A stretch of DNA of 64,000 nt from an uncultured Pseudomonas sp. (GTDB taxonomy: Bacteria; Pseudomonadota; Gammaproteobacteria; Pseudomonadales; Pseudomonadaceae), in assembly GCF_946885955.1 (NCBI RefSeq), contig NZ_CAMPHI010000025.1, forward strand, positions 6,293 through 70,292. The letters are read 5' to 3'. This document shows positions 15,006 to 60,403 of the stretch, piece by piece. Within the stretch, counting starts at the first letter, position 1, and each line of letters opens with the position of its first letter. A program made the position numbers and the translations under genes. The notes under the pieces were generated by a model. It made no database searches. It had not been told where the DNA came from and worked only from the letters and a program-made list of their open reading frames with translations.

Positions 15006-16229
15006 ATGCTACAGCGCGTCACTGATTGGCTGGACTTCTGGCGTTTTCTACTGCGCCGTTTTATCGCCGACCGCTGCGTCAACAATGCGGCGGCCTTGAC
15101 CTATACCACCTTGTTCGCGGTAGTGCCGATGATGACGGTGACCTTCGCGATGCTTTCCGCGGTGCCGGCATTTCAGGGTACGGGCGAGCAGATCCAACAC
15201 TTCATCTTCAGCAATTTCGTGCCCTCCGCTGGCGAGGTGGTCCAGCAGTATCTGGGTGAGTTCACCACCCAGGCGCGCCAGCTGACCTGGATCGGCGCGA
15301 TAGTGCTGGCGGTTACCGCGTTTCTGATGCTGGTCACCATCGAGAAGGCGTTCAATACCATCTGGCGGGTCCGCCAGCCGCGTCGCGGGGTGTCGAGCTT
15401 TCTGCTGTATTGGGCAATCCTGAGTCTGGGGCCGATCCTCCTCGGCAGTGGCTTCGCCATCAGCACTTATATCGCTTCGCTGTCATTGATTTCCGGGCCG
15501 GATGCGCTGCTGGGATTGAAGACGCTGTTGAGTTTTATGCCGGTGCTGTCGAGCATTGCCGCCTTTACTCTGATTTACGCCACTGTGCCCAACGCCCAGG
15601 TGCGTTTGCGCCATGCATTGCTGGGTGGCTTGTTCACCGCCGTGCTGTTCGAAGTGGCGAAAAAGCTGTTCGGCCTCTATGTGCAGATGTTTCCCGGTTA
15701 TCAGCTGATCTACGGCGCTTTTGCCACGGTGCCGCTGTTTCTTCTGTGGATCTACCTGTCCTGGCTGCTGGTGCTGTTGGGCGCCGAATTGGTCTGCAAC
15801 CTGGGCACGCCTCATCAGTGGCGCAAGCGCGCCTTGCCCCGCCTGTTGGTGATGTTGGGGATATTGCGGGTGTTCTATACGCGCCAGCAGTCCGGGCTGA
15901 AAGTGCGCTATCGCGACGTGCAGCGCCATGGTTGGCTGCTGCCCGAGTTCGAGTGGGAAGAGATTCTCGAATTTCTCGAGCAGCAACACCTGATCGCACC
16001 GACCGGGGCCGGGTTCTGGGTGCTGAGCCGCGATCTCGGTCATTACAGCCTGCAGCAACTGCTGAGCCGCAGTCCCTGGCCGCTGCCGCAACTCGGTCAA
16101 CTGCCGGAACATATGGATGAGCCCTGGTATCCGGCGCTGCGCGAGGCGCTGCAAACCTTGCACGATCAGCAGGAGGCATTGTTTGGCGAAAGCCTGGCGC
16201 AGTGGTTGCGTACACCAGAGGAGGAGTGA
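15006..16229 (+). CDS. YihY/BrkB (UPF0761) family inner-membrane protein
   Basis: 407 residues. The N-terminal 280 residues are the YihY/BrkB membrane domain with about six hydrophobic segments and the conserved [15 protein letters not shown] near residue 28. The C-terminal 120 residues are a soluble extension with a winged-helix-like look (W-E-E-I-L-E-F-L-E near residue 317). It was once called RNase BN in E. coli, a name now known to be wrong; the role is unknown. The start follows AAGGAG at a good distance. Confidence 0.9.
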
Positions 16230-47864: not shown

Positions 47865-48338
47865 TCAGCCTTTGTTCAAGGCCTGCGCCGCCGCCAGTAC
47901 TGCATCGACATGCCCTGGCACTTTCACCCCTCGCCATTCCTGGCGCAGTACGCCGTTCTTATCGATCAGGAAGGTGCTGCGGTCGACGCCCAGGTATTCC
48001 TTGCCGTAGAGCTTCTTCAGCTTGATCACATCGAACAGCTGGCACAGCGCTTCGTCTTTATCGGAGATCAGCTCGAACGGGAACTCCTGCTTGCACTTGA
48101 AGTTCTCGTGGGACTTCAAGCCATCCCGGGAGACACCGAAAATCACGGTGTTGGCGGCCTGGAAAGCCGGGTACTGGTCACGAAAACCCTGGCCTTCCGT
48201 GGTGCAGCCCGGCGTGCTGTCCTTCGGGTAGAAATACAGCACGATCTGCTGACCCTTGAGCGCGCTCAGCTGCACCTGCTGGCCGCTGGTGGCTTGTGCC
48301 TGGAAATCGGCAACCGCGGTATCGACTGCTACGGCCAT
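47865..48338 (-). CDS. bcp: Thioredoxin-dependent peroxiredoxin (Bcp/PrxQ type)
   Basis: 157 residues. The peroxidatic site reads Y-P-K-D-S-T-P-G-C-T-T-E-G-Q-G-F near residue 46. In standard PrxQ enzymes a second Cys follows five residues later (C-T-T-E-A-C); here that place is Gln, so the resolving Cys is absent or lies elsewhere (Cys occur in F-K-C-K and L-C-Q-L). It reduces peroxides with thioredoxin or another thiol. Downstream of gcvR on the same strand, 15 bases apart. Confidence 0.92.
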   Translation of the reverse strand: MAVAVDTAVADFQAQATSGQQVQLSALKGQQIVLYFYPKDSTPGCTTEGQGFRDQYPAFQAANTVIFGVSRDGLKSHENFKCKQEFPFELISDKDEALCQLFDVIKLKKLYGKEYLGVDRSTFLIDKNGVLRQEWRGVKVPGHVDAVLAAAQALNKG

Positions 48339-48352
48339 AAAAACATTCCTTT

Positions 48353-48910
48353 TTAAGGGTTCTGTGGGCGCCAGGGTTCGATCAGGGCGTCCAGGTTCAA
48401 CGCATCGGCGAAATCGAGGAACTGGTCGCGCAACCAGCTGATCTGCGTGCCAGCCGGCAGCGTCACGGTCAGGGTGGCGTTGAGCATGGTGCCGCCGGTC
48501 TGTGGCGCCAGGTAGGTATCGCAGGTGAGGTTTTCCAGCTCGACATGATGGTCGATGAAGAACTGGCACAGCTCATTGAGAATGTCGGGGCGGTAGGCCG
48601 CGCTGACGTAAGCGACATAGGGCAGCGCCTGGGGGCGAGCTTCCGATGCTGCGCTACGGATCACATTGACCGAGAAGCTGTGCTTCTTCGCCAGGGCGGG
48701 CAGGCTCGCCTCCAGGCGCGCCAGGGCGTCCCAGTTGCCGGAGATCTGTAGCACCAGGGCGCTGAAGTCGCCATGGCGGCTCAGGCGGGTGCTGACCACA
48801 GCACAACGGTTCTCATGGCTGGTGCGGCACAGGACGTTGGTCAGCTCCATGGCATTGGGGCCGAGCGCACTGATAAGGAGGAATTGTTCGCGAACTGGGG
48901 GGGTGGACAT
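48353..48910 (-). CDS. gcvR: GcvR-type ACT domain regulator
   Basis: 185 residues, two ACT domains in tandem (about residues 8-80 and 95-170), the layout of GcvR, the glycine-binding antagonist of GcvA at the glycine cleavage operon. The start [19 protein letters not shown] is conserved in Pseudomonas. No DNA-binding domain is visible, as expected. It is cotranscribed with bcp and divergent from dapA. Confidence 0.88.
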
Positions 48911-49137
48911 GCAACCTTCCTAAAGCGATTAACGCTCTGCGCACACGAAGTGCGTCAAGCAAAGGCGGAAGGGTAGCGAAAAGCGTAGCCCAGGGGAATG
49001 CTCATGGGTCGTCTGGGCGAGGATTGTTCGGTGCTTCGCACAGAAATTCTGGTTGTTCGAGAGCCTTGTACTTCGCTTGTGCAAGGCTGGTGGCGCCAGT
49101 ACCATTACCGCTCTCTTTTTCCGGCAGGAGCGGTTGC

Positions 49138-50016
49138 ATGATTGCGGGCAGTATGGTGGCACTGGTCACGCCCATGGATGCACAAGGTGGTCTCGATTGG
49201 GACAGCCTGAGCAAACTGGTGGATTTCCATCTGCAAGAAGGCACCAACGCCATAGTCGCGGTCGGCACCACGGGTGAGTCCGCCACGCTGGATGTGGGCG
49301 AGCATATCGAAGTCATCCGACGTGTGGTCGACCAGGTCGCCGGGCGTATTCCGGTCATCGCCGGTACCGGTGGCAACTCCACCCGTGAATCGGTCGAGCT
49401 GACCCGGGCGGCGACCGAGGTTGGCGCAGACGCCTGCCTGCTGGTCACGCCCTACTACAACAAGCCGACCCAGGAAGGCCTGTACCAGCACTTCCGTCAT
49501 ATCGCCGAAGCCGTGGCGATCCCACAGATTCTCTATAACGTACCGGGCCGCACCGTGTGCGACATGCTGCCGGAAACCGTCGAGCGTCTGTCGAAGATCG
49601 ACAACATCATCGGTATCAAGGAAGCCACTGGCGACCTGCAGCGCGGCAAAGAAGTGCTGGACCGGGTCGCCAAGGATTTCCTCGTGTACTCCGGCGACGA
49701 CGCCACCGCTGTCGAACTGATGCTGATGGGCGGTCGCGGCAATATTTCGGTAACCGCCAACGTCGCCCCGCGCGCCATGAGCGACCTGTGCGCCGCCGCC
49801 ATGCGTGGCGAGGCGGCCATCGCCCGTGCCATCAACGACCGCTTGATGCCGCTGCACAAGGCGCTGTTTATCGAATCCAACCCTATCCCGGTGAAGTGGG
49901 CCCTGCATGAAATGGGCATGATGCCTAACGGTATCCGCTTGCCGCTGACCTGGCTCAGCCCGCGTTGTCATGAACCGCTGCGTCAGGCCCTGCGCCAGTC
50001 CGGCGTATTGGTTTAA
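49138..50016 (+). CDS. dapA: 4-hydroxy-tetrahydrodipicolinate synthase DapA
   Basis: 292 residues, TIM barrel. Condenses pyruvate with aspartate semialdehyde for lysine and DAP synthesis. G-T-T-G-E-S-A-T near residue 43, the catalytic Tyr in P-Y-Y-N-K-P and the Schiff-base Lys in G-I-K-E-A-T-G-D near residue 161. The ATG at 49138 follows GGCAGGAGCGGTTGC. The frame is open back to 49024. bamC follows after 17 bases. Confidence 0.97.
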
Positions 50017-50033
50017 TTGAGGAAATATCACGC

Positions 50034-51152
50034 ATGAAGCGACTGGGCGGACTCTCAGCACTTGCTCTTATCATCTCCAGCGTCAGCGGTTGCGGTTGGA
50101 TCTACGGCGAAAACGGCTATTTCCGCGATCGCGGTAGCGATTACCTCGAAGCGCGGCAAACCGCGCCCATGCAAATGCCTGCCGGTGTCGAGGCCAAGCG
50201 CATCGATCCACTGCTGCCGGTGCCGCAGCAGGTCGCCGACAGCAAGGCTCAGGGCGAGTACGAAGTGCCGCGGCCGCAGCCGATGTCGATCAGCGCCGAC
50301 GCCAGCGAGTTCAGTCTGCAAAAGAGCGGCGATTCGCGTTGGCTGGTTGCCCAGCGCGTGCCCGCCGAAGTCTGGCCGTTGGCCCGTCAGTTCTTCGAAG
50401 ACAATGGCTTTCAGATCGTCGACGAGCGCCCTCAGACCGGCGAATTCAGTAGCGCCTGGCAGCGTATCGATCAGCTGTCGTCCACCATGGCCAGCCGCCT
50501 GAGCAGCAGTGTCGACGGCGGCGCCGCGGCCACCGAGGCCCGCGTACGGGTGCGTATCGAGCCCGGCGTGCAGCGCAACACCAGTGAAGTCTTCGTGGTC
50601 AGTGCCTTGCGCCCGGCCGGTAGCAATGCCGATGTCGCCTTCACCAGTCGTAGCGGCAATGCTGGCGTCGACGCCGCGTTGCTCGACGAAATGCTCGTCA
50701 GCCTGGCCCGTAGCGCCGAGCAGGGTGGTTCGGTGTCACTGCTGGCCGCTCGCGATTTCGACGCGCCGAGCCGCGTCAGCCTTACCGAGGACGGCAACGG
50801 CAATCCGATACTCAACCTGGGCGCCGATTTCGATCGTGCCTGGTCCGCCGTTGGCCGCTCTCTGGAACTGGCCGACGTACGCATCGACGACCTTAACCGC
50901 AGCCTTGGCGTGTACTACGTCAACCTGGCTGAAGGCGCCCGCAAGAAAGACGAAGAGCCTGGCTTCTTCGGCAAGGTGTTTGGCGGCGAACCTGATAAGG
51001 AAACCATCGAGGAGCGCGCCGAGCGCTATCAGGTGCGCCTGACCCCGGTCGGCGATAGCGTGCAGGTCACGGTGGAGAAAGACTTGAACACCGTTGCGCC
51101 GGCCGACGTAACCCGCCGCGTGCTGACGCTGATCCAGGACAATCTGGGTTAA
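50034..51152 (+). CDS. bamC: Outer-membrane assembly lipoprotein BamC
   Basis: 372 residues. Lipobox V-S-G-C (Cys 20), then the conserved unstructured segment containing Y-F-R-D-R-G-S-D-Y that lies across BamD, and two helix-grip domains. It belongs to the BAM complex that folds outer-membrane barrels. The dapA-bamC pair is conserved in gammaproteobacteria. Confidence 0.93.
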
Positions 51153-51183
51153 GCTTCGCCGCTAGTGTTGTTGCATTACCAAT

Positions 51184-51212
51184 AGGCGAAACCCGGTGGG
51201 TTTCGCCTGTTT
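51184..51212 (+). terminator. Hairpin between bamC and purC
   Basis: AGGCGAAACCC (51184-51194) and GGGTTTCGCCT (51198-51208) form an 11-bp stem with a 3-base loop, followed by GTTTCGTTT. The T-run is broken, so it may end bamC transcription only partly or act in the purC leader, 26 bases before the start codon. Confidence 0.6.
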
Positions 51213-51238
51213 CGTTTCCTAAAGACGGAAATCCAGAA

Positions 51239-52108
51239 ATGACCACACCCTCGACCCTGAGCCTGAAAAAGATCTACTCGGGCAAAGTCCGCGACCTCTA
51301 CGAAATCGACGACAAGCGCATGCTGATGGTCGCCACCGACCGTCTTTCGGCCTTCGACGTGATCCTCGCCGAGCCGATCCCGGACAAGGGCAAGATCCTC
51401 ACCGCGATCTCCAATTTCTGGTTCGACAAACTCGCCGGCCTGGTGCCCAACCACTTCACCGGCGACAAGGTCGAAGACGTGGTGCCGGCCGCCGAGCTGC
51501 CGCTGGTCGAGGGTCGCGCTGTGGTCGCCAAGCGCCTCAAGCCAATCGCCGTGGAAGCCATCGTACGTGGCTACATCGTCGGTTCCGGCTGGAAGGAATA
51601 CCAGAAGAACGGCACCGTCTGCGGTATCCAACTGCCCGCCGGCCTACGGGAAGCCTCCAAGCTGCCGCAACCGATCTTCACCCCGTCGACCAAGGCCGCC
51701 GTCGGCGACCACGACGAAAACATCTCCTACGAGCAATGCGAGGCCATCATCGGCGCGGACATCGCCGCCAAAGTGCGCGACACCGCCATTGCCCTCTATA
51801 GCGCCGCTGTCGAGTACGCCGCGACCCGCGGCATCATCATCGCCGATACCAAATTCGAATTCGGCCTCGACGAGAACGGCACCCTGACCCTGATGGACGA
51901 AGTGCTGACCCCCGATTCCAGCCGCTTCTGGCCCGCCGAGAGCTATGCCGAAGGCCAGAGCCCGCCAAGCTTCGACAAGCAATTCGTGCGCGACTGGCTG
52001 GAGTCCACCGGCTGGAACAAACAACCTCCAGCCCCCGCAGTACCCGCCGACGTCGCGCAAAAGACCGCCGACAAATACCGCGAAGCCCTGACCAAACTGA
52101 CCCAGTAA
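51239..52108 (+). CDS. purC: SAICAR synthetase PurC, long form
   Basis: 289 residues. Joins aspartate to CAIR in purine synthesis. Marks: [10 protein letters not shown] near residue 12, D-R-L-S-A-F-D near residue 35, R-G-Y-I-V-G-S-G-W near residue 110, D-T-K-F-E-F-G and [12 protein letters not shown] near residue 220. The family has a short form (about 237 residues; E. coli, P. aeruginosa) and a long form (about 290-300 residues; for example Neisseria and yeast). This is the long form although it stands where Pseudomonas carries the short one, between bamC and tRNA-Ser. Base composition is like its neighbours. Confidence 0.93.
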
Positions 52109-52206
52109 ACGGCCCGGACAGCGACGGCAGCTTGCTGTCGCCGTTGCCATACACCAGCCGAATGACGCAAGCATCTGAAAGCAGGCAAGAAATTTACCCG
52201 GCGGGC

Positions 52207-52235
52207 TTCGCCAAATCGATTTCAGCTGCTATCAT
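52207..52235 (+). promoter_or_regulatory. Probable promoter of tRNA-Ser
   Basis: TATCAT at 52230-52235 followed by GCGCGCC, the same minus-10 plus GC discriminator as in front of tRNA-Lys. The minus-35 is weak (TTCGCC at 52207). Confidence 0.45.
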
Positions 52236-52247
52236 GCGCGCCGCCAC

Positions 52248-52337
52248 GGGAAGATGCCGGAGTGGCCGAACGGGACGGATTCGAAATCCGTTGTATCAGC
52301 GATGGTACCTAGGGTTCAAATCCCTATCTTCCCGCCA
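52248..52337 (+). tRNA. tRNA-Ser (anticodon CGA)
   Basis: 90 bases, class II with long variable arm and encoded CCA. Acceptor GGGAAGA/TCTTCCC, anticodon stem ACGGA/TCCGT with anticodon CGA at 52282-52284, T-arm TAGGGTTCAAATCCCTA. Its 3' end is partly duplicated at 53930-53961, which marks it as the integration site of the island that follows. Confidence 0.96.
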
Positions 52338-52341
52338 TATA
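52329..52341 (+). repeat. Putative attachment repeat, left copy (tRNA-Ser 3' end)
   Basis: TTCCCGCCATATA, the acceptor end of tRNA-Ser plus four bases, recurs exactly at 53949-53961. Including mismatches the likeness extends about 17 bases into the T-arm (TAGGgTTcAAATCC against TAGGaTTaAAATCC). Confidence 0.65.
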
Positions 52342-52350
52342 GCAGTACCT

Positions 52351-52386
52351 AAGCCCCTGATTTTCCTAGCGAAGTCAGGGGTTTTT
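52351..52386 (+). terminator. Intrinsic terminator of tRNA-Ser
   Basis: CCCCTGA opposite TCAGGGG followed by TTTTT. Confidence 0.85.
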
Positions 52387-52452
52387 GCGTTTCTGGGTAT
52401 TAGCACTGGCGAAAAAGTGTCGAAGGCTCTGCACTGGCCCTCTTCTGGCTAA

Positions 52453-52617
52453 AGCCTCTTCCTGCACCTAGCCGCCGGCTCCGGTAGGGAGAAGCTGTTG
52501 AAGCAGCTAGCCACGACCGTCATTGGAATCAGGCTAGGTGAGATTACGGGATCTCGGGCGCGAATCCACATCGATGCACCAGCTGACATTTCCATAGCCA
52601 GAGAAGAGCTACTATGA
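52453..52617 (+). pseudogene. CsrA/RsmA-like remnant without start codon
   Basis: The frame from the TAA at 52450 to the TGA at 52615-52617 reads 54 codons: S-L-F-L-H-L-A-A-G-S-G-R-E-K-L-L ... T-T-V-I-G-I ... R-A-R-I-H-I-D-A-P-A-D-I-S-I-A-R-E-E-L-L. This follows the CsrA plan: L-x-L at the start, G-E-K-L-L, then T-V-x-G-I, and above all R-I-x-I-x-A-P-x-x-x-x-x-x-R-E-E at the end, with about five extra residues (G-E-I-T-G) in the middle loop. No ATG, GTG or TTG exists at the expected first codon (CTC/CTG), so I call it a decayed gene. The stop overlaps the ATG of the next ORF. Confidence 0.5.
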
Positions 52618-52673
52618 GATTAGACACAATAGAGCTTGTAAACTACCGTATGGATGTAACCCCATGGCAATAA
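52614..52673 (+). other. 19-codon ORF, possible 5' remnant of an ATPase gene
   Basis: ATG at 52614 overlaps the stop of the CsrA-like frame (ATGA) and follows GAAGAG. It encodes MRLDTIELVNYRMDVTPWQ and stops at 52673. The first 12 residues look like the N-terminal strand of RecF/SMC-type ATPases (M-R-L-x-x-I-E-L-x-N-Y-R), after which the likeness ends. It overlaps the start of the lipoprotein gene. Twelve residues are too few for certainty. Confidence 0.3.
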
Positions 52674-53244
52674 TTAAATCCTCTATTTTAACTTTAACAA
52701 ATATCATTGGATATTTACTTGTTTCTGGATGCGCTTCAATGCCACCAGAAGCTAAAGTAGAGGAGGGGGTGCGTTTAATACTTGATCGATCAAATGATCC
52801 GGCGGTTAATTTTTTTACTACGCTGACGACTATGATTGTTTCTCCCCTAGAGCTATAACGTTACCTTACACGCAGATGATTGGAGCATATTCAGTTCCTA
52901 GAAAGAAGTACTTAACTATATATGCCGCCCATGAGAACTCCCCGATCCCAGGTCTGCCTCTATATCGATCCCAGTGCGTCGAGGTCGAGACAGTGTTAAT
53001 CGAGGGAGTTAAGGAGCTCAAAATTGTTACTGGCGTGGGAGCTAACGATTGCGAAACTATATACTCTGCCAAAGGAGAAGATAACCAATGGAGGGAGCTA
53101 GATAGCGTGCAGCGCATCAATCCCCATCTTCCTTTTTGGGCGCTTGAAACTCAAGGGCCTTACTGTATTGCCAGTCCGCAATTTCAAGGGTCCTCACTTT
53201 ATATTAAGCCCCGCACCAAAGCGGATAATGAAAAGGCTTATTGA
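52664..53244 (+). pseudogene. Cys-rich lipoprotein gene, frameshifted at a run of seven T
   Basis: ATG 52664 encodes a lipoprotein signal with lipobox L-V-S-G-C (Cys 23) and runs to V-N-F-F, then shifts to a stop at 52858. At 52810-52816 there are seven T; with eight the frame would go on as F-F-Y-Y-A-D-D-Y-D-C and stay open to 53244, giving 193 residues. The next gene carries the same A-D-D-Y-D-C, V-T-G-x-G-x-x-x-C-x-T-I and F/Y-Q-G-S-S-x-Y-x-x-P-R at matching distances, with all four mature cysteines conserved. So it is a broken paralogue, or a sequencing error, or slippage at the T-run. AT-rich compared with the backbone. Confidence 0.75.
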
Positions 53245-53249
53245 TTTCC

Positions 53250-53822
53250 ATGACCAGCATAGTCAGAAAGTTTAAAACGTGTATTGCTTTATCTTTGGCG
53301 CTCTTACTAGCCGGTTGCACAGCGCCTCCCCTTCAAAAGCCGTCTAGCGGCAATAAAGTTGAAGTCACCTTTGAGCGAACCAACACCATGACTGGTGAGT
53401 TTGTAGTATGGGCGGATGACTATGATTGTTACGGCTATGCAGAGCCAGTTAACTTTGGCTCTGGCATAAACAAAGTTAAAGTTTTCTTAGAGCGAAAGCC
53501 TTATCTCAGTATACAGTCTATGCAATATTCACAAATTACAGTGCCGGGAATTTCTACCACATACAGCTCCTGCGGAGGAACCAGGACAATTGCAATTGAC
53601 GAGACCAGTCAGTACAAAGTAGTGACAGGTCTAGGCCCATACTACTGTCAGACTATTTTCTTAAAAAAAGAAGCTAGCGGCCAATGGGTAACCATAGAAT
53701 CAGATAAGCGCCTTCCTCCACCCAGCACTGGATGGGGTATAAATAATCCTGGTTGCGCTGCAGATGCTAAATACCAAGGTTCTTCTATATACATGCAACC
53801 GCGCGGGCCATCCGCCCAATAA
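53250..53822 (+). CDS. Cys-rich lipoprotein of unknown function (intact paralogue)
   Basis: 190 residues from the ATG at 53250 (a TTG at 53241 is possible). Signal peptide with lipobox L-L-A-G-C. The mature part is beta-rich with four cysteines (D-Y-D-C, S-S-C-G-G, Y-Y-C-Q-T, P-G-C-A-A), which could form two disulfides. I recognise no family. It follows its frameshifted paralogue at once, the stop of that gene lying six bases before this start. Low GC and rare-codon use set it apart from the backbone. Confidence 0.75.
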   Translation: MTSIVRKFKTCIALSLALLLAGCTAPPLQKPSSGNKVEVTFERTNTMTGEFVVWADDYDCYGYAEPVNFGSGINKVKVFLERKPYLSIQSMQYSQITVPGISTTYSSCGGTRTIAIDETSQYKVVTGLGPYYCQTIFLKKEASGQWVTIESDKRLPPPSTGWGINNPGCAADAKYQGSSIYMQPRGPSAQ

Positions 53823-53857
53823 CAAGGGTTAGTGTAAAAACATTGCAAAAAATAGCT

Positions 53858-53957
53858 GGGATTGGCGGAGGTCTCTCGGCTAGAGGTCGCGAATATCAAT
53901 GCTTTGCCAGATATAGCGGGCGAAAATATAGGATTAAAATCCTTAATATTCCCGCCA
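53858..53957 (+). other. tRNA-like sequence ending in the tRNA-Ser 3' end
   Basis: 100 bases that begin GGGATTG and end TATTCCC-G-CCA, so an acceptor stem can form with one mismatch and one wobble. Three hairpins fit between: GGTCTC/GAGGTC (53870-53888, two wobbles), ATATC/GATAT (53893-53914), and AGGAT-TAAA-ATCCT (53930-53943) where the T-arm belongs. No normal anticodon loop with U33 is found and the T-loop lacks TTCAA. It may be a degenerate tRNA-Ser left by integration or a tRNA mimic. A terminator follows at once. Confidence 0.5.
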
Positions 53958-53961
53958 TATA
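53949..53961 (+). repeat. Putative attachment repeat, right copy
   Basis: TTCCCGCCATATA, identical to 52329-52341, 1620 bases away in direct orientation; it bounds the AT-rich segment with the lipoprotein genes. Confidence 0.65.
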
Positions 53962-53964
53962 TAG

Positions 53965-54002
53965 AAAAGCCCCGCAAATAAATAGAATTTGCGGGGCTTT
54001 TT
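53965..54002. terminator. Strong intrinsic terminator after the tRNA-like sequence
   Basis: AAAGCCCCGCAAAT and ATTTGCGGGGCTTT form a 14-bp stem, T-rich on one side and A-rich on the other, so it can work both ways, also for the minus-strand parD remnant operon. Confidence 0.9.
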
Positions 54003-54016
54003 CTTTTGGAGCTTCT

Positions 54017-54073
54017 TCAAAAAACTCTCCACCATTTCGCCAGTGTTCTCGGGGTAATCGGTTTGGTCTTCAT
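54017..54073 (-). pseudogene. Truncated ParE toxin gene (first about 12 codons)
   Basis: ATG at 54073 overlaps the parD stop (ATGA), the usual parDE coupling. It reads MKTKPITPRTLA, which resembles the start of one ParE subgroup (MKxKPxxPRxLA), then K-W-W-R-V-F and a stop at 54017-54019. The roughly 80 further residues of a ParE toxin are missing. The break, about 54038, lies at the edge of the AT-rich segment, so an insertion or deletion removed the toxin. Confidence 0.6.
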
Positions 54074-54306
54074 GCCCGAGCGCTACGCACCTTGACGCGT
54101 AGCAATTTGAAGTAGTCGCCATCGGCAGGCGTAGTGGGGGCGGATTTCGCTCCAACCAGAAGCAGACCACGCAGATGCTGCCGGTCATGATCCTTACGAA
54201 TCAGTTCGCGAACGTACTCGCTACTGGTGCTGTAGCGACGCTGGCCAACCTGCTCATCGACGAAGCTTTTCAGCGCATCGGGTAAAGAAATGTTCATGGT
54301 GCTCAT
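54070..54306 (-). CDS. parD: ParD-family antitoxin (ribbon-helix-helix), orphan
   Basis: 78 residues, begins MSTMNISLPDALKSFVDEQV: an N-terminal ribbon-helix-helix (M-N-I-S-L-P-D strand, then two helices with S-T-S-S-E-Y-V-R-E-L-I-R) for operator binding, and a C-terminal toxin-binding tail with G-D-Y-F-K-L-L-R. This matches ParD of type II toxin-antitoxin systems. Its toxin partner downstream is truncated to about 12 codons, so the antitoxin is an orphan; it may still repress its own promoter or bind other toxins. Confidence 0.85.
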   Translation of the reverse strand: MSTMNISLPDALKSFVDEQVGQRRYSTSSEYVRELIRKDHDRQHLRGLLLVGAKSAPTTPADGDYFKLLRVKVRSARA

Positions 54307-54582
54307 GATGGAATCCGCCCTTTTGGCAAAAATTGGCAAAGACGCCACATCCTACCGCTAAAGAGGGTGTCGAAAACACTGTGCCAAATAGCGACGAATC
54401 GAGACGGCAAGGAAGGGCGAACCCTCCGTACTGCAACGGTTTGCGATGAATTGAAACGCTAGAAGACGGGTTCAAATCCCATAAATTATGCCCCGGATGG
54501 CACGCGGGCACTTTTGCGCATTTGATCATTATCAGGGCCGCGTGCAAGCTACGGCCTCTACTCCTTTCTTGCGTTATGCCCC
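54307..54582. other. Intergenic region with a stray tRNA T-arm copy
   Basis: 276 bases. GGGTTCAAATCCC (54468-54480) is identical to the T-arm of the tRNA-Ser at 52313-52325, but no acceptor end or CCA follows and no full tRNA can be folded. It may be a second, older attachment remnant. The promoter of parD (leftward) and of the GlxA-type gene (rightward) must lie here. Confidence 0.5.
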
Positions 54583-55533
54583 ATGAAATCCGTCGCAGTC
54601 GTGTTGTTCCCTGAACTCCTTCTACTTGATGTCTCTGGGCCGATGGAGGTTTTCTCCATTGCTAACCGCTTCCTGGCTAAAGACGACTGCTATGAAATAT
54701 CGACAATAGCCTCGGATGAGTTGCTGGTCCGCGCATCGAATGGGTTGGCGCTTACTGCGGATATGCTGATTGACGATGCGCCTGGGGGCTACGACGTGCT
54801 GTTGGTGCCGGGTGGGCCGGGTGCCTATAACGAGGTTTATCCGCGGATCGAATGTTGGCTGCGTAAGGTCGCTACAGGGGTCAAGTGTTTGGGCTCGATC
54901 TGTACCGGGGCCTTTATTTTGGGGCAGGCTGGCCTGCTTGATGGTCGCCGCGTCACTACCCATTGGAATTACACGGAACGGTTGGCCAAGCGCTATCCCC
55001 ACGCGGAGGTCGAAACCGACCGGATATTCGTTAGAGATGGAAACTTGATCACCTCGGGCGGGGTTACCACCGGGATCGATTTGGCGCTGTCGATTGTCGC
55101 CGAAGACCATGGGAAGAAAATGGCGTTGGCCGTGGCCAAGGTGTTGCTGGTGGTGATGCAGCGTCAAGGCGGGCAGATGCAGTTCAGCCCTTTGGTGGCG
55201 GCCGTCGCCAAGGACGATTCGCCTATTGCCAGAGTCCAGAATTACGTACTGGAAAATGTGACGGAGGAGTTCAGCATCGAGCGCATGGCCGCGCTGGCAG
55301 CTATGAGCTCACGTCACTTTGCACGGCTTTTTACCCGCGAAGTGAACATGACGCCGATGGAATTTGTGCAAAGCGCGCGCATCGACAGCGCCAGAGCGCT
55401 GTTGGAAACCACGGAGCTTCCGCTGAAAACAGTGGCTTACCGCAGTGGCTTCGGCAGTGTGCGGCATATGCGCTACTTGTTCAGCGAAAGGTTGGGGCTT
55501 ACGCCGACGCTCTATCGCAGGCAATTCAGCTAG
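54583..55533 (+). CDS. GlxA-family AraC-type transcriptional regulator
   Basis: 316 residues. N-terminal DJ-1/PfpI-like domain (about 1-170) with P-G-G-P near 76 and the nucleophile-elbow Cys 107 in S-I-C-T-G-A-F; C-terminal AraC helix-turn-helix pair (about 215-312) with M-S-S-R-H-F-A-R-L-F and the final A-Y-R-S-G-F-G-S-V-R-H-M-R-Y-L-F. Family members sense small amines or other metabolites and activate catabolic genes. The target is unknown. GC content has returned to the genome level. Confidence 0.88.
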   Translation: MKSVAVVLFPELLLLDVSGPMEVFSIANRFLAKDDCYEISTIASDELLVRASNGLALTADMLIDDAPGGYDVLLVPGGPGAYNEVYPRIECWLRKVATGVKCLGSICTGAFILGQAGLLDGRRVTTHWNYTERLAKRYPHAEVETDRIFVRDGNLITSGGVTTGIDLALSIVAEDHGKKMALAVAKVLLVVMQRQGGQMQFSPLVAAVAKDDSPIARVQNYVLENVTEEFSIERMAALAAMSSRHFARLFTREVNMTPMEFVQSARIDSARALLETTELPLKTVAYRSGFGSVRHMRYLFSERLGLTPTLYRRQFS

Positions 55534-55712
55534 TGTCCGTATTGGGCTGTCGATTGGCCGTATCTGTCCGCTTTTGAGCACTTTCTCAGCAAGGATCTTT
55601 GCGAGGATGTCCGGGAATCCTCACAACGGAGGAGCGCTAGACGCTGAGCGGAGTTGGTTTGGTGGTTGGTACGCCAAGACGAGCCTGGTCGCTGTCCTAG
55701 CGCTTCGTATGC

Positions 55713-57185
55713 ATGGAAAGACCCAGAAGCATCCACCCCGAAGGGACAGTACGGTTCGGGCCCTTTTGCTATCACGCGCACCAGCGGCTCGTAGCCGATG
55801 GGAATAAGCCACTGCGCCTGGGTAGCAAGGCGCTCGAGATCCTCCATCTGCTGATTGAGAACGCCGGGGCCGTGGTGAGCAAGGAAACCATCATTGCTCA
55901 TGTATGGCCTTCCACTGTGGTCGAAGACATCAACTTGCGGGTACAGATTGCCGCCTTGCGACGCGTGCTCAGGGACGGGCAGGGCGGTCAGCGTTATATC
56001 GTCAATGTCCCGCAGCGTGGCTACAGCTTCGTTGCCGAGGTGCAAGCGGGCATCGCGCAAAGTGCCGGCCCTGCTTGGCGGGCCGAGAGCTCAGGTGCCA
56101 ATCTGCCGGTGCGACTGTCCGCGGTTGAAGGTCGTGATGCGGTTGTCGAGCGCCTGATCAAGCTGCTGCCCGTTCGCCGCTTCATCACCCTGGTTGCCGC
56201 TGGCGGCATGGGTAAGACGACGGTGGCGGTGCGGGCTGCCGAGTTGCTGCAACAGCACTATGGCGATGGGGTGGTTTTTGTCGATCTCGCCGCACTTACG
56301 GATTCGGCGCGAGTGCCGGCCAAAGTCCTTAGCACCCTCGGCCTGGGCACCCAGGGCATTGAGCCTGGCGCTTGCCTAGCCGACCATCTGCGCAATCGCC
56401 ATCTGTTGCTGCTACTGGATAATTGCGAACACCTGATCGATGCCTGCGCCAATCTGGCTGAGCACCTGCTCAAGGAGGCGCCTCGGTTGTCGATTCTGGC
56501 GACCAGTCGCGAGCCTCTGCTGGCCGTGGGGGAGTCTGTGCAGCGCTTGATACCGCTAAGCATTCCCGAGGCTACGGCGCACTTGAGCGCGAACGAGGCG
56601 TTGAAGTACTCGGCGCTGCAGCTATTCGTTTCTCGCGTGGCGGCTCATCAAGAACGCTTCACTCTGCAGGAGCAGGATGTGGCCACTGTCGCGGATATCT
56701 GCCGGCGATTGGACGGTTCCCCACTGGCTATCGAGTTGGCGGCTGCGCGGGTGGAGGCCTTCGGTTTGGAGGGACTGCGGGTTCACCTGGATGGTGATTT
56801 TCTATTGTCGATGCGCGGACAGCGAACGGCCCTGTCGCGTCAGCAGTCGTTGCGCGATTCCTTGAGCTGGAGTTATGCGTTGCTGTCAACGGCCGAGCGG
56901 ACCGTGTTGCAGCGCCTGGCCGTGCTCAAGGCGCCCGTTACGCTGGATCAGGCAATTACGGTTGTCAGCTGCGAGTTGCTGGGTGAGGCCTGTATCTTCG
57001 AGGCGATTATCCAATTGGCGGCAAAGTCCTTGCTCTTCGTCGAGATGAGCGCTGAGGGCGCGCGCTATGGATTACTCAATTGCACCCGTGCCTATGCCCT
57101 GGAAAAGCTCAGGGAAAGTCAGGGTTATCTGGTGGCGCAAAACGCTGTACCCGCTATCGGGATCCGCGTCATCGAGCCGGCATGA
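55713..57185 (+). CDS. Winged-helix / ATPase regulator, C-terminally shortened
   Basis: 490 residues. N-terminal OmpR/CadC-type winged helix (about 15-110: S-K-A-L-E-I-L-H-L-L, V-V-S-K-E, N-L-R-V-Q-I-A-A-L-R, V-P-Q-R-G-Y-S-F-V) and an NB-ARC/AAA-like ATPase with Walker A A-A-G-G-M-G-K-T-T near 166 and L-L-L-L-D-N-C-E-H near 230. It is a close paralogue of the convergent gene at 57201-60011, aligned through Y-A-L-E-K-L-R near residue 466, after which it has only about 20 unrelated residues; the roughly 450-residue helical repeat domain of the paralogue is missing. It may be a truncated copy or a repeat-less regulator. Confidence 0.8.
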   Translation: MERPRSIHPEGTVRFGPFCYHAHQRLVADGNKPLRLGSKALEILHLLIENAGAVVSKETIIAHVWPSTVVEDINLRVQIAALRRVLRDGQGGQRYIVNVPQRGYSFVAEVQAGIAQSAGPAWRAESSGANLPVRLSAVEGRDAVVERLIKLLPVRRFITLVAAGGMGKTTVAVRAAELLQQHYGDGVVFVDLAALTDSARVPAKVLSTLGLGTQGIEPGACLADHLRNRHLLLLLDNCEHLIDACANLAEHLLKEAPRLSILATSREPLLAVGESVQRLIPLSIPEATAHLSANEALKYSALQLFVSRVAAHQERFTLQEQDVATVADICRRLDGSPLAIELAAARVEAFGLEGLRVHLDGDFLLSMRGQRTALSRQQSLRDSLSWSYALLSTAERTVLQRLAVLKAPVTLDQAITVVSCELLGEACIFEAIIQLAAKSLLFVEMSAEGARYGLLNCTRAYALEKLRESQGYLVAQNAVPAIGIRVIEPA

Positions 57186-57200
57186 ATTGTCGCGCCCGCC

Positions 57201-60011
57201 TCAGGCCGGGAGCGCGAAGTTCAGTCGATCCAGCGTTTGCTTGGCCTGCAGCAAGTCGGGGGTGGCAAAACCCTCGGTAAAGCGCGCATAGATCGGAGCC
57301 AGCAGGGCGTGGGCGTCTTGCTCGCGACCTTGCAACTGCCACAGGTGCGCGAGGCTGGTGGCACTGCGCAGCTCCCAGGCGATGGCGCCCTGTTGCCGTG
57401 CAATAGCCAGTGACTGTAATAGCAAGCCTTCGGCTGTGTGCTGTTCTGCTGGCTGTAGCTCGATCAGGTTCACTGCTTTCGCGCGTAGCGTCTCCGCCGT
57501 CGCCCAGCCGGCATCCCCGGACATCGCCCGCTCGAGCATGGCATCGTCGGCAAAGCAGGAATGCAGCGTCACTGCGATATCCCTGACCAGCCCTGAATAT
57601 GCGGTTCGGTTTTCCGTCAGGGTGGCTGCATCCAGCGTGGCGTAACGCCGAGCCCAGGTATGGAAAAAACGCAGGTTGTGCGTTTGGCTGCGCTCGAGGA
57701 ACAACTCGAGGAGTTGACCAGCTGCTTCGCTGTGGCCGTTGTAGCGAGCGATGATCCAGGCGGACAGGGCGAGCGTGTAGCAGATCGACAGGCCGTGATC
57801 GATTTGCAGGGCAAGCTGCAAGGCCTGGTTGGCCAGCTGCCAGGCCTGCTCGGGGAACCCTTGTAGCCAGAGTGTGCGAGCCAGCAGGGTGTTGGTGGCG
57901 ACCTGGTGGTCGTATTGCACGCCGAAACCATAGGTGAGGTGGCTGCGCGCCTGGTTTTCGGCAAAGTAGGTAAGTACCTGCTCGGCGTGGTGCCGAGCCT
58001 CGGGCTGGTGGCCGACAAAATGCTGCGCCAACCCTTGCAGACGCACCTTGCTGAACGCCAACTGGGTGGCGTCGAGGGGGCATAGATCACTGAAATGACC
58101 GGTTTGCTCCAGTGCCTGGCGGTAGCGGCCACAACTCAAGTTCACCGCCATAAGACCTGATAGCGCTCTCAGCTGACCGGTCACGTCGTTGCATTGTTCT
58201 GCCAGTTGCAGGGCTGTGGTAAAGGCCTCGATAGTCTCGGTCGTGCCGCCGTTCATGTGGTACCAGGCGTTACCCTGGATCAGCTTGAGTGCGAGCTTGA
58301 GGGATAGGTTGGGCTGCGTTTGACTGTCCAGCGCGGCCAAGGCGCTGCTGACAAAGGCGCCATGCTCTTTCAGCAGGGATAGCTCCTGCCACAGGGGGGC
58401 CGATAGTAGGGTAAGGCGAATGGCAATCTGCGTATGCGCGTTCACCGAGAACGCCCAAGTGAGTAACGCGCGGATGTCCTCCAGGGCATAGACATAGCTG
58501 TTCAGCCAGAGCTGTCGCGCAGTGCTTTCCCACTCGTTTTGCGCCTGCTCCATCAGCGTCGCGCAGCGCTCCGCTTGGCGCAGCTGGCAGGCTGGTAGCT
58601 CGCCGGCATCGCGCAATTTTTCCAGCGCGTAGGTACGGGTGATATCCAGAAGACGGTAGTGTGCCTGATCGTCGGCTATCGCCACCTGTACCAACGACTT
58701 GGCCACCAGTTGGCTGAGCACAAGGGGCACCTGCTCGGGCGGCATATCGGCGGCAGCGATCACCGCTATCGCTGACTCAAGCGTGAAGCGCCCGCGAAAC
58801 ACGCCGAGACGGCGCAGGCTGAGTTGCTCCTCGGGGCTCAGCAGGTCATGGCTCCAGTCCAGGGTGGCACGCAGGGTTTGCTGACGCGGCAGGGCAGTGC
58901 GGCGGCCCCGGTTCAGCAGGCGAAAACCATCGTCGAGCTGCGCCAGTACGCCACCCAGCCCCAGGCCGCTGATCTGCGCCGCCGCGAACTCGATCGCCAG
59001 CGGGATGCCATCCAGCCGGCGGCACAACTCGCTGGCGATTGGCAGCTCGGCGTCGCTTAGTTCGAAACTGTCCAGGCTGCTGGTGGCGCGCTCCAGCAGC
59101 AGCTGCAAAGCGGTGAAACGCAGGGCCTGCGTTCTGTTCTGCGCGTCGGCGGGCGCTGGGCATTCCAGCGGCCCCAGGCGTCGCACACATTCGTCCTCGA
59201 TGCGTAAGGCCTCCCGGCTGGTCGCCAGGATGTGCAAGCAGGGTGCGGCTTTCAAAAGGTGCTCGGCCAGGGGCGCCACGGCATCGATCAGGTGTTCGCA
59301 GTTGTCCAGCAGCAACAACAGGCTGCGCTCTGCGAGGAAGCTAGAAAGATCGTCCAGCGCCTCATCGCTGTCTCGGGGAATGTTCAATACCGCGGCTAAT
59401 TTGTCGGCCAGGGTCGCAGGCTCGCTGAGCGGCGCCAGGTCGAGCAGATAAACGCCGTGCGCATAGTGCGGCAGCAGCAACTCGGCAACATGCAGCGCGA
59501 CTGTGGTCTTGCCGATCCCGCCAGGCCCCACGAGGGTGACGCTGCGCCGTTTACGTAGCAGCCGTACCAGGCTGCAGACCATCTCGCCACGGCCGATCAT
59601 GCGGGTCAGATGAGGGGGCAGGTTGTTTGCGCGAGAGTGCTCTGCCGGGTTCTCGACGTCATGCTCAACGTCCTGCCAGGCCAGTGGGGCGACCAGGCTA
59701 TAGCCTCGTTGCGGCACGGTAACGATGAAGCGCTGGCCGGCTTGGCCATCACCCAGGGCTTTTCGCAGTGCGGCCATATGCACACGCAGATTGATCTCTT
59801 CGACCACACTGTCGGGCCAGACCCGCGCGAGCAGTTGTTCCTTGCTGACGACCTCGCCCGCGTGCTCCAGCAGCGCCAGCAGGATATCCAGGGCGCGGCT
59901 GCCAAGGCGCACCGGCCGTTTGCTCTCGAGAATCAGGCGCCTGTGTGGATAGACCTGAAAGGGCCCCAGTGAGGCGACTTGTTCGTTGGCGGCGCTTGTT
60001 CGTCGGTTCAT
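57201..60011 (-). CDS. Winged-helix / ATPase / TPR-like transcriptional regulator
   Basis: 936 residues. Winged helix (about 15-105, V-P-Q-R-G-Y-S-L-V), ATPase with Walker A G-P-G-G-I-G-K-T-T near 165 and L-L-L-L-D-N-C-E-H, R-L-G-V-F-R-G-R-F-T-L-E winged region near 400, then about 450 residues of helical, TPR-like repeats. This STAND-type plan (DNA-binding, signal ATPase, repeat sensor) is typical of inducible activators. The start is ATG 60011 (GGGA six bases before); ATG 60017 is also possible. It is divergent from the hydrolase-amidohydrolase operon, so that is the first candidate target. Confidence 0.88.
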   Translation of the reverse strand: MNRRTSAANEQVASLGPFQVYPHRRLILESKRPVRLGSRALDILLALLEHAGEVVSKEQLLARVWPDSVVEEINLRVHMAALRKALGDGQAGQRFIVTVPQRGYSLVAPLAWQDVEHDVENPAEHSRANNLPPHLTRMIGRGEMVCSLVRLLRKRRSVTLVGPGGIGKTTVALHVAELLLPHYAHGVYLLDLAPLSEPATLADKLAAVLNIPRDSDEALDDLSSFLAERSLLLLLDNCEHLIDAVAPLAEHLLKAAPCLHILATSREALRIEDECVRRLGPLECPAPADAQNRTQALRFTALQLLLERATSSLDSFELSDAELPIASELCRRLDGIPLAIEFAAAQISGLGLGGVLAQLDDGFRLLNRGRRTALPRQQTLRATLDWSHDLLSPEEQLSLRRLGVFRGRFTLESAIAVIAAADMPPEQVPLVLSQLVAKSLVQVAIADDQAHYRLLDITRTYALEKLRDAGELPACQLRQAERCATLMEQAQNEWESTARQLWLNSYVYALEDIRALLTWAFSVNAHTQIAIRLTLLSAPLWQELSLLKEHGAFVSSALAALDSQTQPNLSLKLALKLIQGNAWYHMNGGTTETIEAFTTALQLAEQCNDVTGQLRALSGLMAVNLSCGRYRQALEQTGHFSDLCPLDATQLAFSKVRLQGLAQHFVGHQPEARHHAEQVLTYFAENQARSHLTYGFGVQYDHQVATNTLLARTLWLQGFPEQAWQLANQALQLALQIDHGLSICYTLALSAWIIARYNGHSEAAGQLLELFLERSQTHNLRFFHTWARRYATLDAATLTENRTAYSGLVRDIAVTLHSCFADDAMLERAMSGDAGWATAETLRAKAVNLIELQPAEQHTAEGLLLQSLAIARQQGAIAWELRSATSLAHLWQLQGREQDAHALLAPIYARFTEGFATPDLLQAKQTLDRLNFALPA

Positions 60012-60403
60012 GCCCATTCCCGTATATGGCGCGGATTTTTGCGTGACCTGAACGCCCCGAGCAGGCGCCGAAGGCGCGACCGAGGCTTGTCCGCTGTTCC
60101 CAACGCCTTGCGCGGACGCCCTCCGCATACAACCAATTCAGGATAAATAATCCAAGCAGATCATACACATACAGAGGTAGGGCTGCAGTCGTGTTAAGCC
60201 GTTAAGGGGGTTGGCACAACGACAATTAACAACCCTTAACTCGCCCTCGATCGGGCCCCGCCTGAAGATGAAGCCACGCCAGAGCATAGACCGGATGGCC
60301 TGCAATTAGCCGCTACCAGCAGGAAGGCGTTGCCGTTAGCCAGAACTGTTTCGCATCCCGGCAGCACCTGCAATCACCCCAGACCATTTGGAAGGAGCCG
60401 CAC
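60012..60403. other. Divergent control region regulator / hydrolase operon
   Basis: 392 bases without a supported gene, holding the promoters of the STAND-type regulator gene (leftward) and the hydrolase operon (rightward). The GTTAAG repeats listed separately lie in its middle. Confidence 0.65.
60193..60240. promoter_or_regulatory. Candidate operator with GTTAAG repeats
   Basis: GTTAAG at 60193-60198 and 60201-60206 in direct repeat, and CTTAAC at 60235-60240 plus TTAAC at 60226-60230 in inverted orientation. GTTAAGGGGGTTG (60201) against CAACCCTTAAC (60230) forms an inverted repeat. Placement midway in the divergent region suits a binding site of the winged-helix regulator; this is inference. 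Confidence 0.5.

What the first reader, a model, noticed from the sequence alone, without database searches (positions are those of the whole stretch)
52338..54582. Decayed AT-rich island integrated at tRNA-Ser
Between tRNA-Ser and the GlxA-type gene the composition turns AT-rich, backbone genes stop, and almost every element is broken or an orphan: CsrA-like frame without start, frameshifted lipoprotein, tRNA-like remnant, truncated parE. Exact direct repeats TTCCCGCCATATA at 52329 and 53949 bound the first 1.6 kb. No integrase is left. It looks like the residue of one or more elements.
Basis: partly seen in the sequence, partly recalled or inferred. Interest (0 to 1): 0.7.

Follow-up and report, generated by a model that had tools for sequence, protein, structure and literature searches.

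The report
Decayed filamentous-phage remnants at tRNA-Ser
This short AT-rich stretch of a Pseudomonas chromosome is what is left of one, more likely two, filamentous (Pf-like) viruses that inserted into a serine tRNA gene and lost nearly all their own genes; the kind of event is common, though the leftovers include an orphan antitoxin and a rare lipoprotein.

Summary
Behind an intact tRNA-Ser(CGA) GC drops to 0.44-0.52; csrA, one lipoprotein gene and parE are broken, a second lipoprotein gene and parD are intact, and no integrase was found. The sequence before it is a conserved attachment arm: a profile of 16 right ends from other genomes (window left out) finds 54366-54482 at E=4e-27. The same arm closes Pf-like filamentous prophages, one of them at the same tRNA-Ser in Pseudomonas peli, and 7 of 7 viral contigs with its exact 19-mer carry inovirus-type genes. 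A csrA of the same extended form sits in an apparently complete relative. The island is thus a stump of Pf-like prophages. A second, degenerate tRNA/terminator copy (53929-54007) suggests two tandem insertions, each cut by an internal deletion to ends plus distal cargo; that part is weaker. Of 398 genomes surveyed 16 carry the arm; beside it 8 have no integrase match and 2 only a fragment. None of these 10 has a Zot match, against 5 of the other 6, so helper-dependent mobility is not supported. Ordinary process, modest novelty.

The parts
52248..52337 (+). tRNA-Ser(CGA), intact; its 3' part is the attachment core
   Evidence: ARAGORN; Rfam
52338..52430 (+). left attachment arm: terminator-like hairpin, then GTGTCGA at 52417 with a degenerate copy 11 bp before it (read by eye)
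   Evidence: GTGTCGA at +80 from the tRNA end; L011, L012, L019, L028, L030 have pairs at +66/67 and +77/78
52444..52617 (+). csrA pseudogene of the extended type seen in a Pf-like prophage; start lost, one stop in frame
   Evidence: PF02599 on 52486-52614; CsrA of L107 aligns to 52444-52611, E 2e-6
52664..53244 (+). lipA: lipoprotein pseudogene split into two frames (52664-52858 and 52876-53244)
   Evidence: continuous 193-aa homologue P0005, 84% to the C-terminal piece; paralogue of lipB, 34% over 106 aa
53250..53822 (+). lipB: intact 190-aa lipoprotein (LLLAGC lipobox, read by eye), no Pfam or PADLOC family
   Evidence: only P0001 (itself), P0002 and P0003 found in the protein database
53834..54007 (+). 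probable second attachment site: very degenerate right arm, tRNA-Ser 3'-end copy (53929-53961), terminator hairpin (53965-54001)
   Evidence: 0 of 1000 shuffles reach the core's score; 53839-53949, E 0.033, weak; inverted repeat I1; 53929-54007 matches tRNA 3' end plus terminator of L004 at 75.6%
54017..54073 (-). parE remnant, 18 codons and stop
   Evidence: read; L004 has a 109-aa parE at the equivalent place
54070..54312 (-). parD antitoxin gene, intact 80 aa, orphan
   Evidence: PF03693; 84% to parD of L004
54366..54482 (+). right attachment arm ending in tRNA T-arm GGGTTCAAATCCC (54468-54480): right end of the element
   Evidence: nhmmer E 4.3e-27 with a profile that excludes the window; cmsearch E 3.5e-25

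Best explanation
The segment 52338-54482 is the residue of Pf-like filamentous prophages (Inoviridae). A phage tyrosine integrase recombined the 3' end of tRNA-Ser(CGA) with a matching attP, so that the tRNA gene was restored at the left end and a 3'-end copy was left at the right end. Most likely this happened twice, giving a tandem array: tRNA/attL-A, A, attR-A/attL-B, B, attR-B. Each prophage then lost its integrase, replication and virion genes in one internal deletion that starts just behind its left end and stops inside its first remaining distal cargo gene (csrA in A, parE in B). What stays is the ends and the distal moron cassette: csrA', lipA', lipB, and parE'-parD. Shown: intact tRNA, right arm B, second tRNA 3'-end copy, identity of the csrA, parD and parE remnants, cousins with integrase at the same tRNA. 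Partly shown: the left arm (one exact repeat) and the arm of the internal site. Inferred: two insertions rather than one, single deletions, their order, and any present function. Possible residual roles, not tested: orphan ParD as protection against ParE of incoming Pf-like phages, lipB as a surface lipoprotein. Confidence 0.85 for Pf-like prophage residue; about 0.55 for the tandem version.
For: Right arm found by a profile of 16 other right ends, E 4.3e-27, and by a model of 14 of them, E 3.5e-25. The same arm closes an apparently complete Pf-like prophage at the same tRNA-Ser in P. peli (L101: tRNA 2951-3040, integrase PF00589, Zot PF05707, Arc PF03869, further genes named by position, right end 15945-16104). 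7 of 7 IMG/VR contigs with the exact 19-mer match at least four of the prophage gene queries each. In the 398-genome survey 16 genomes carry the arm, 15 of them 1-15 kb downstream of a tRNA-Ser on the same strand. GTGTCGA at +80 behind the tRNA. A csrA of the same extended type lies between a conserved membrane-protein gene and the right end in L107 and viral contig L125. parDE next to the right arm in L004, L103, L104 and L108. Two right ends at the same tRNA-Ser in L011.
Against: None of the P. peli prophage queries (integrase, Rep, Zot, pIII-like, ssDNA-binding, Arc, excisionase-like) matches the window (lowest of these E 0.11), so the assignment rests on ends and cargo. The arm in front of the internal tRNA copy is not found by nhmmer up to E 10, does not beat shuffles clearly in pairwise alignment (54, 289 and 17 of 500 as good) and is weak with the full model (E 0.033 in 2.6 kb, partly from the tRNA core), so the tandem version is not proven. 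lipA and lipB were not found in any viral contig. The right arm has no match at E<=0.01 in 50,697 phage records. Three other viral contigs found with the L107 CsrA match none of the prophage queries.
Confidence: 0.85

Rival explanations
1. One prophage, not two: a single Pf-like prophage with the order csrA, lipA, lipB, parDE, right end; the internal tRNA 3'-end copy arose by later recombination.
For: In relatives csrA follows the membrane-protein gene (L107) and parDE stands just before the right end (L004, L108), so the window order could be one distal cassette. The arm before the internal copy is hardly recognisable.
Against: The internal copy carries tRNA 3' end plus terminator exactly where parE is cut off; two right ends at this tRNA exist in L011.
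Confidence: 0.3
2. A non-autonomous satellite: ends plus cargo without integrase, moved in trans by the integrase of a resident or incoming Pf-like phage.
For: 8 of 16 genomes with the arm have no integrase match beside it and 2 only a fragment, yet several keep left end, right arm and whole cargo frames (L004, L102, L103, L104, L110). L103 and L104 share the first about 205 bp including the tRNA (86%) and the parDE-to-right-arm block (91%) but differ in between. Integrases at most 60% identical to that of P. peli lie elsewhere in several of these genomes.
Against: 0 of the 10 genomes without a full integrase beside the arm have a Zot match at E<=1e-10, against 5 of the 6 with one. The right tRNA core is not recognisable in L103 and altered in L004. 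Broken genes and degenerate att copies in the window do not look like an active unit. No identical unit was seen at two sites, though none was searched for systematically.
Confidence: 0.07
3. Remnant of a tailed phage of the PAJU2 type or another tRNA-Ser element unrelated to inoviruses.
For: 23 phage records, all named Pseudomonas, match this tRNA-Ser; the 20 listed ones match 67 bp (52275-52341) at 89.6%, in PAJU2 just upstream of the integrase gene.
Against: The right arm has no match in the phage collection, and all 7 viral contigs that have its 19-mer carry inovirus-type genes.
Confidence: 0.06

Closest known systems
Pf filamentous prophages (Pf1, Pf4, Pf5, Pf6; Inoviridae) of P. aeruginosa
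   Same: tyrosine integrase, tRNA 3'-end attachment core, excisionase, parDE as one of the commonest morons (passages read in PMC7549136), kinase-kinase-phosphatase cargo in Pf6 (passages of PMC11341870)
   Different: The window keeps none of the core genes. [quoted passage not shown] aeruginosa sites; here 15 of 16 arms lie at tRNA-Ser (9 GGA, 6 CGA).
PfiT/PfiA toxin-antitoxin pair of Pf4
   Same: a ParE/RelE-superfamily toxin with antitoxin inside a filamentous prophage (starts of the abstracts of PMC7264888 and PMC13048266, seen in the listing)
   Different: Here parE is cut to 18 codons and parD stands alone; homology to PfiT/PfiA themselves was not tested.
CsrA/Rsm proteins on mobile elements of Pseudomonas
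   Same: csrA alleles on phages and plasmids are described (passages read in PMC7366521)
   Different: The word 'filamentous' does not occur in that text; the copy here is an extended, broken variant.

Membership tests
Pf-like inovirus prophage (intact) | Zot/pI-like ATPase gene | tested here: not met
   tblastn of P. peli Zot against the window, best E 0.38
Pf-like inovirus prophage (intact) | Rep, ssDNA-binding and integrase genes | tested here: not met
   best tblastn E 2.2, 0.21 and 0.57 with the P. peli proteins; the names Rep and ssDNA-binding are mine, by position
Remnant of a Pf-like prophage | conserved right attachment arm | tested here: met
   E 4.3e-27, E 3.5e-25
Remnant of a Pf-like prophage | tRNA restored at one end, 3'-end copy at the other | tested here: met
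   at 54468 only the 13-bp T-arm is exact, the acceptor part is altered
Remnant of a Pf-like prophage | left arm with paired GTGTCGA repeats | tested here: inconclusive
   one exact repeat at +80 and one degenerate, same 11-bp spacing
Remnant of a Pf-like prophage | cargo shared with members that have the core genes | tested here: met
   extended csrA in L107/L125, parDE beside the arm in L108
Tandem array of two prophages | second attachment site with its own arm | tested here: inconclusive
   tRNA 3' copy certain, arm weak
Type II toxin-antitoxin pair parDE | both genes intact | tested here: not met
   parD intact, parE cut
Trans-mobilised satellite | helper phage in the same genome | tested here: inconclusive
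   in relatives, 0 of 10 genomes with integrase-poor elements have a Zot match; the window's own genome is not held
Trans-mobilised satellite | precise excision or transfer | not testable with these tools
   needs an assay or strain comparison

The most novel reading that the evidence does not exclude
Integrase-free units made of Pf-type left arm, defence or toxin-antitoxin cargo and Pf-type right arm at tRNA-Ser genes are a class of inovirus satellites (or selectively retained cargo islands) in Pseudomonas, and the window holds two decayed ones side by side.
Probability: 0.08. Interest if true: 0.7.

Novelty: new member of a known kind. Interest (0 to 1): 0.33.

Why it matters
It turns an unexplained AT-rich patch into a named, testable history and gives a 117-bp arm that finds Pf-like prophages and their stumps, including ones that searches for Zot would miss: of the 16 genomes found by the arm, 10 have no or only a fragmentary integrase match beside it, and none of these 10 has a Zot match. 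It also suggests that in Pseudomonas outside P. aeruginosa tRNA-Ser is a usual site for such phages, and that their distal cargo (parDE, AriA/AriB-like, NsnB-like ATPase, kinase-like genes) can outlast the phage.

Tried and rejected
Pairwise alignment of the segment before the internal tRNA copy with three right arms did not separate it from shuffles (54, 289 and 17 of 500 shuffles as good); kept only as weak. A full-length tRNA-Ser pseudogene was rejected. lipA and lipB searches in viral contigs found no relative; in 398 genomes only one distant chromosomal relative (G025) was found, both with lipB and with P0005; none in 15 named relatives. The structure of lipB was predicted with low confidence (mean pLDDT 61.7) and the PDB search gave no match at E<=0.001, so no function is claimed beyond a probable beta-rich lipoprotein. 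Rfam matches around 53860-54030 are all below their gathering scores and probably reflect the terminator hairpin. The 20 plasmid matches listed (of 93 records) lie at parD or the parD-parE junction. Two genomes of the survey (G317, G227) were dropped because their matches are 22-bp words that do not align with the others. PMC12629846 on Pseudomonas defence islands was searched for tRNA-Ser and filamentous phages without a hit.
Full report
What was asked. The finding describes a decayed AT-rich island between tRNA-Ser and a GlxA-type gene at 52338-54582. No whole genome is held for the window. The 80 best BamC-anchored loci place it in Pseudomonas, close to P. tumuqii (83% BamC identity), P. 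anguilliseptica (80%) and P. peli (79%); none is conspecific.

The observation. tRNA-Ser(CGA) is intact at 52248-52337. GC is 0.440-0.456 in the five 500-bp windows inside 52500-53999, 0.49-0.52 in the next three, and 0.56-0.68 elsewhere in 48000-60000 apart from the window that straddles the tRNA (0.486). The exact 13-mer repeat is there. It belongs to a copy of the tRNA T-arm and acceptor end (53929-53961) with a following terminator; 0 of 1000 dinucleotide shuffles reach its score, while the 5' part of the tRNA is not found above chance (668 of 1000). CsrA (PF02599, 27.5 bits against a cut-off of 27), a split lipoprotein gene, an intact paralogous lipoprotein gene (34% over 106 residues), a parE cut to 18 codons (read) and an intact parD (PF03693) are confirmed.

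The right end. In L004 (Pseudomonas sp. CC6-YY-74) and L017 the last about 110 bp before the 54468 repeat recur beside the same tRNA-Ser. Searching 398 genomes drawn from the genus of P. peli with window 54340-54482 gave matches in 18. Two (G317, G227) rest on 22-bp words and were dropped after alignment. The other 16 share the arm: GTGTCGA repeats and a conserved stretch of about 100 bp that in most leads into a tRNA T-arm; in G002 the T-arm is not recognisable. A profile of 16 right ends (15 of these 16 genomes plus L017; the window and G002 left out) finds window 54366-54482 at E 4.3e-27; a second model from 14 of them gives E 3.5e-25. The arm has no match at E<=0.01 in 50,697 phage records.

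What the arm belongs to. In P. peli an apparently complete prophage sits at the same tRNA-Ser(CGA) as in the window, with its right arm about 13 kb from the tRNA (L101). Libraries name its integrase (PF00589, PF24624), Zot (PF05707) and an Arc-like protein (PF03869). The names Rep, pIII-like, ssDNA-binding, excisionase-like and repressor-like that I use for its other genes are mine, from position and recalled Pf gene order; PHROGs list the first three as families of unknown function, and the two regulators rest on weak HTH matches or on PHROG matches of the L004 homologues. With these as tblastn queries I looked at stretches of up to about 20 kb that hold the 16 arms. Fifteen arms lie 1-15 kb downstream of a tRNA-Ser on the same strand (nine GGA, six CGA); for the sixteenth (G300) ARAGORN found no tRNA, and its core matches the tmRNA core quoted in PMC7549136. 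Six of the 16 have a near full-length integrase beside the arm (G012, G258, G312, G333, G127, G300), two a fragment (G016, G365), eight none (G269, G233, G002, G265, G402, G213, G004, G132). Seven IMG/VR contigs carry the exact 19-mer GTGTCGAAAACACTGTGCC; all seven match at least four of the queries each. The arm is thus the right end of Pf-like filamentous prophages.

The left part. Behind the tRNA the window has GTGTCGA at +80 and, by eye, a degenerate copy 11 bp before it; L011, L012, L019, L028 and L030 have exact pairs at +66/67 and +77/78, and all five carry the integrase, part of it, or the right arm. Among 80 BamC-anchored loci 76 contain tRNA-Ser, and 12 of these have GTGTCGA within 250 bp, in two of them (L049, L056) at other distances. 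The csrA remnant is of an extended form with extra residues in its first half (by eye); a csrA of that form lies inside the apparently complete prophage L107 and, 100% identical, in viral contig L125, between the membrane-protein gene and the right arm. That protein aligns to window 52444-52611 through one stop at E 2e-6. Three further viral contigs found with it (L126-L128) lack the extra residues and match none of the prophage queries. So segment A also looks inovirus-derived, on weaker grounds than B.

One or two insertions. The internal tRNA copy with its terminator stands exactly where parE is cut. That fits attR of one prophage joined to attL of another, with B having lost everything from behind its left terminator into parE and A everything from behind its left arm into csrA. 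The arm in front of the internal copy is almost unrecognisable: not found by nhmmer up to E 10, E 0.033 with the full model in a 2.6-kb stretch, pairwise scores within shuffles. A precedent for two right ends at this tRNA is L011. I hold the tandem version at about 0.55.

Recurring stumps. Integrase-free relatives keep a left end, the right arm and distal cargo: L103 (P. tumuqii, tRNA-Ser GGA) keeps little more than arms and parDE in about 1 kb; L104 keeps arms, other frames and parDE in about 1.8 kb. L004 has genes that match AriA and AriB models best, L110 an ATPase that matches NsnB best, L102 a protein that matches PD-T4-6 kinase models best and, by eye, a second kinase and a PP2C-type phosphatase, which recalls the kinase-kinase-phosphatase module of Pf6 (PMC11341870, passages). 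L107 carries a P-loop ATPase that looks NACHT-like by eye; PADLOC gives only PDC-S60 at E 1.8e-5. I tested whether such stumps might be satellites: with the P. peli Zot as query, 0 of the 10 genomes with no or a fragmentary integrase beside the arm have a match at E<=1e-10, against 5 of the 6 others (G312 is the exception). Integrases at most 60% identical to that of P. peli lie elsewhere in several of the 10. This favours decay over helper-dependent mobility, though past helpers and more divergent Zot genes are not excluded.

The lipoproteins. lipB has two relatives (81 and 83% identical) in a search of about 5.8 billion proteins that needs shared exact words, the lipA C-terminal piece one (84%); a distant relative of both lies in 1 of 398 genomes next to a gene that looks like folE by eye. 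A low-confidence model (mean pLDDT 61.7) is beta-rich and has no PDB match at E<=0.001. A role as surface lipoprotein, perhaps against further phages, is a guess.

Known background. [quoted passage not shown] aeruginosa and parDE as one of the commonest morons, and mention tRNA-Ser as site of a filamentous phage that uses a serine-type recombinase; passages in PMC6813254 describe toxin-antitoxin pairs across inoviruses; passages in PMC7366521 describe csrA on phages and plasmids. The listings of six library searches showed no paper whose title or abstract start treats Pf-like prophages at tRNA-Ser with a tyrosine integrase; I claim no more than that. The tRNA-Ser also serves tailed phages: 23 phage records match it, the 20 listed over 67 bp at 89.6%.

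Verdict. Interest is modest; the recurrent integrase-free stumps and the arm as a detection tool are the more useful parts.

Noticed in passing
L010, L016, L019, L020, L032, L033, L036, L037: tRNA-Ser(CGA) is inverted relative to bamC in 8 of the 76 loci that contain it, in some next to purC, in others kilobases away.
   Followed up: no
window 51239-52108 versus L044-L079: The window's 289-aa PurC has no tblastn match at E<=1e-3 in these 36 loci although BamC and tRNA-Ser are in place, which suggests two different PurC types at one position.
   Followed up: no
window 54583-60128: The GlxA-type regulator and two convergent regulator genes with Trans_reg_C and NB-ARC/STAND-like domains (490 aa, perhaps truncated, and 975 aa) have no close counterpart in the 80 loci; GlxA gives two weak partial matches, the other two none.
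   Followed up: partly
L101 16215-17420: In P. peli a second, different integrase gene (Arm-DNA-bind_2) follows directly behind the right end of the filamentous prophage, so elements may be stacked there too.
   Followed up: no
G333:C1 2220974-2234527: Three Zot matches with identical scores lie exactly 6258 bp apart, which looks like a tandem triplication of a small inovirus.
   Followed up: no
L011 15153-15300 and 18016-18187: Two right ends in a row at one tRNA-Ser in P. khazarica, a likely tandem pair of remnants.
   Followed up: partly
L004 15879-16466, L101 13733-14479: A conserved protein gene (membrane segment by eye) without a Pfam family above its cut-off stands before the distal cargo in many of these prophages and stumps.
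   Followed up: no
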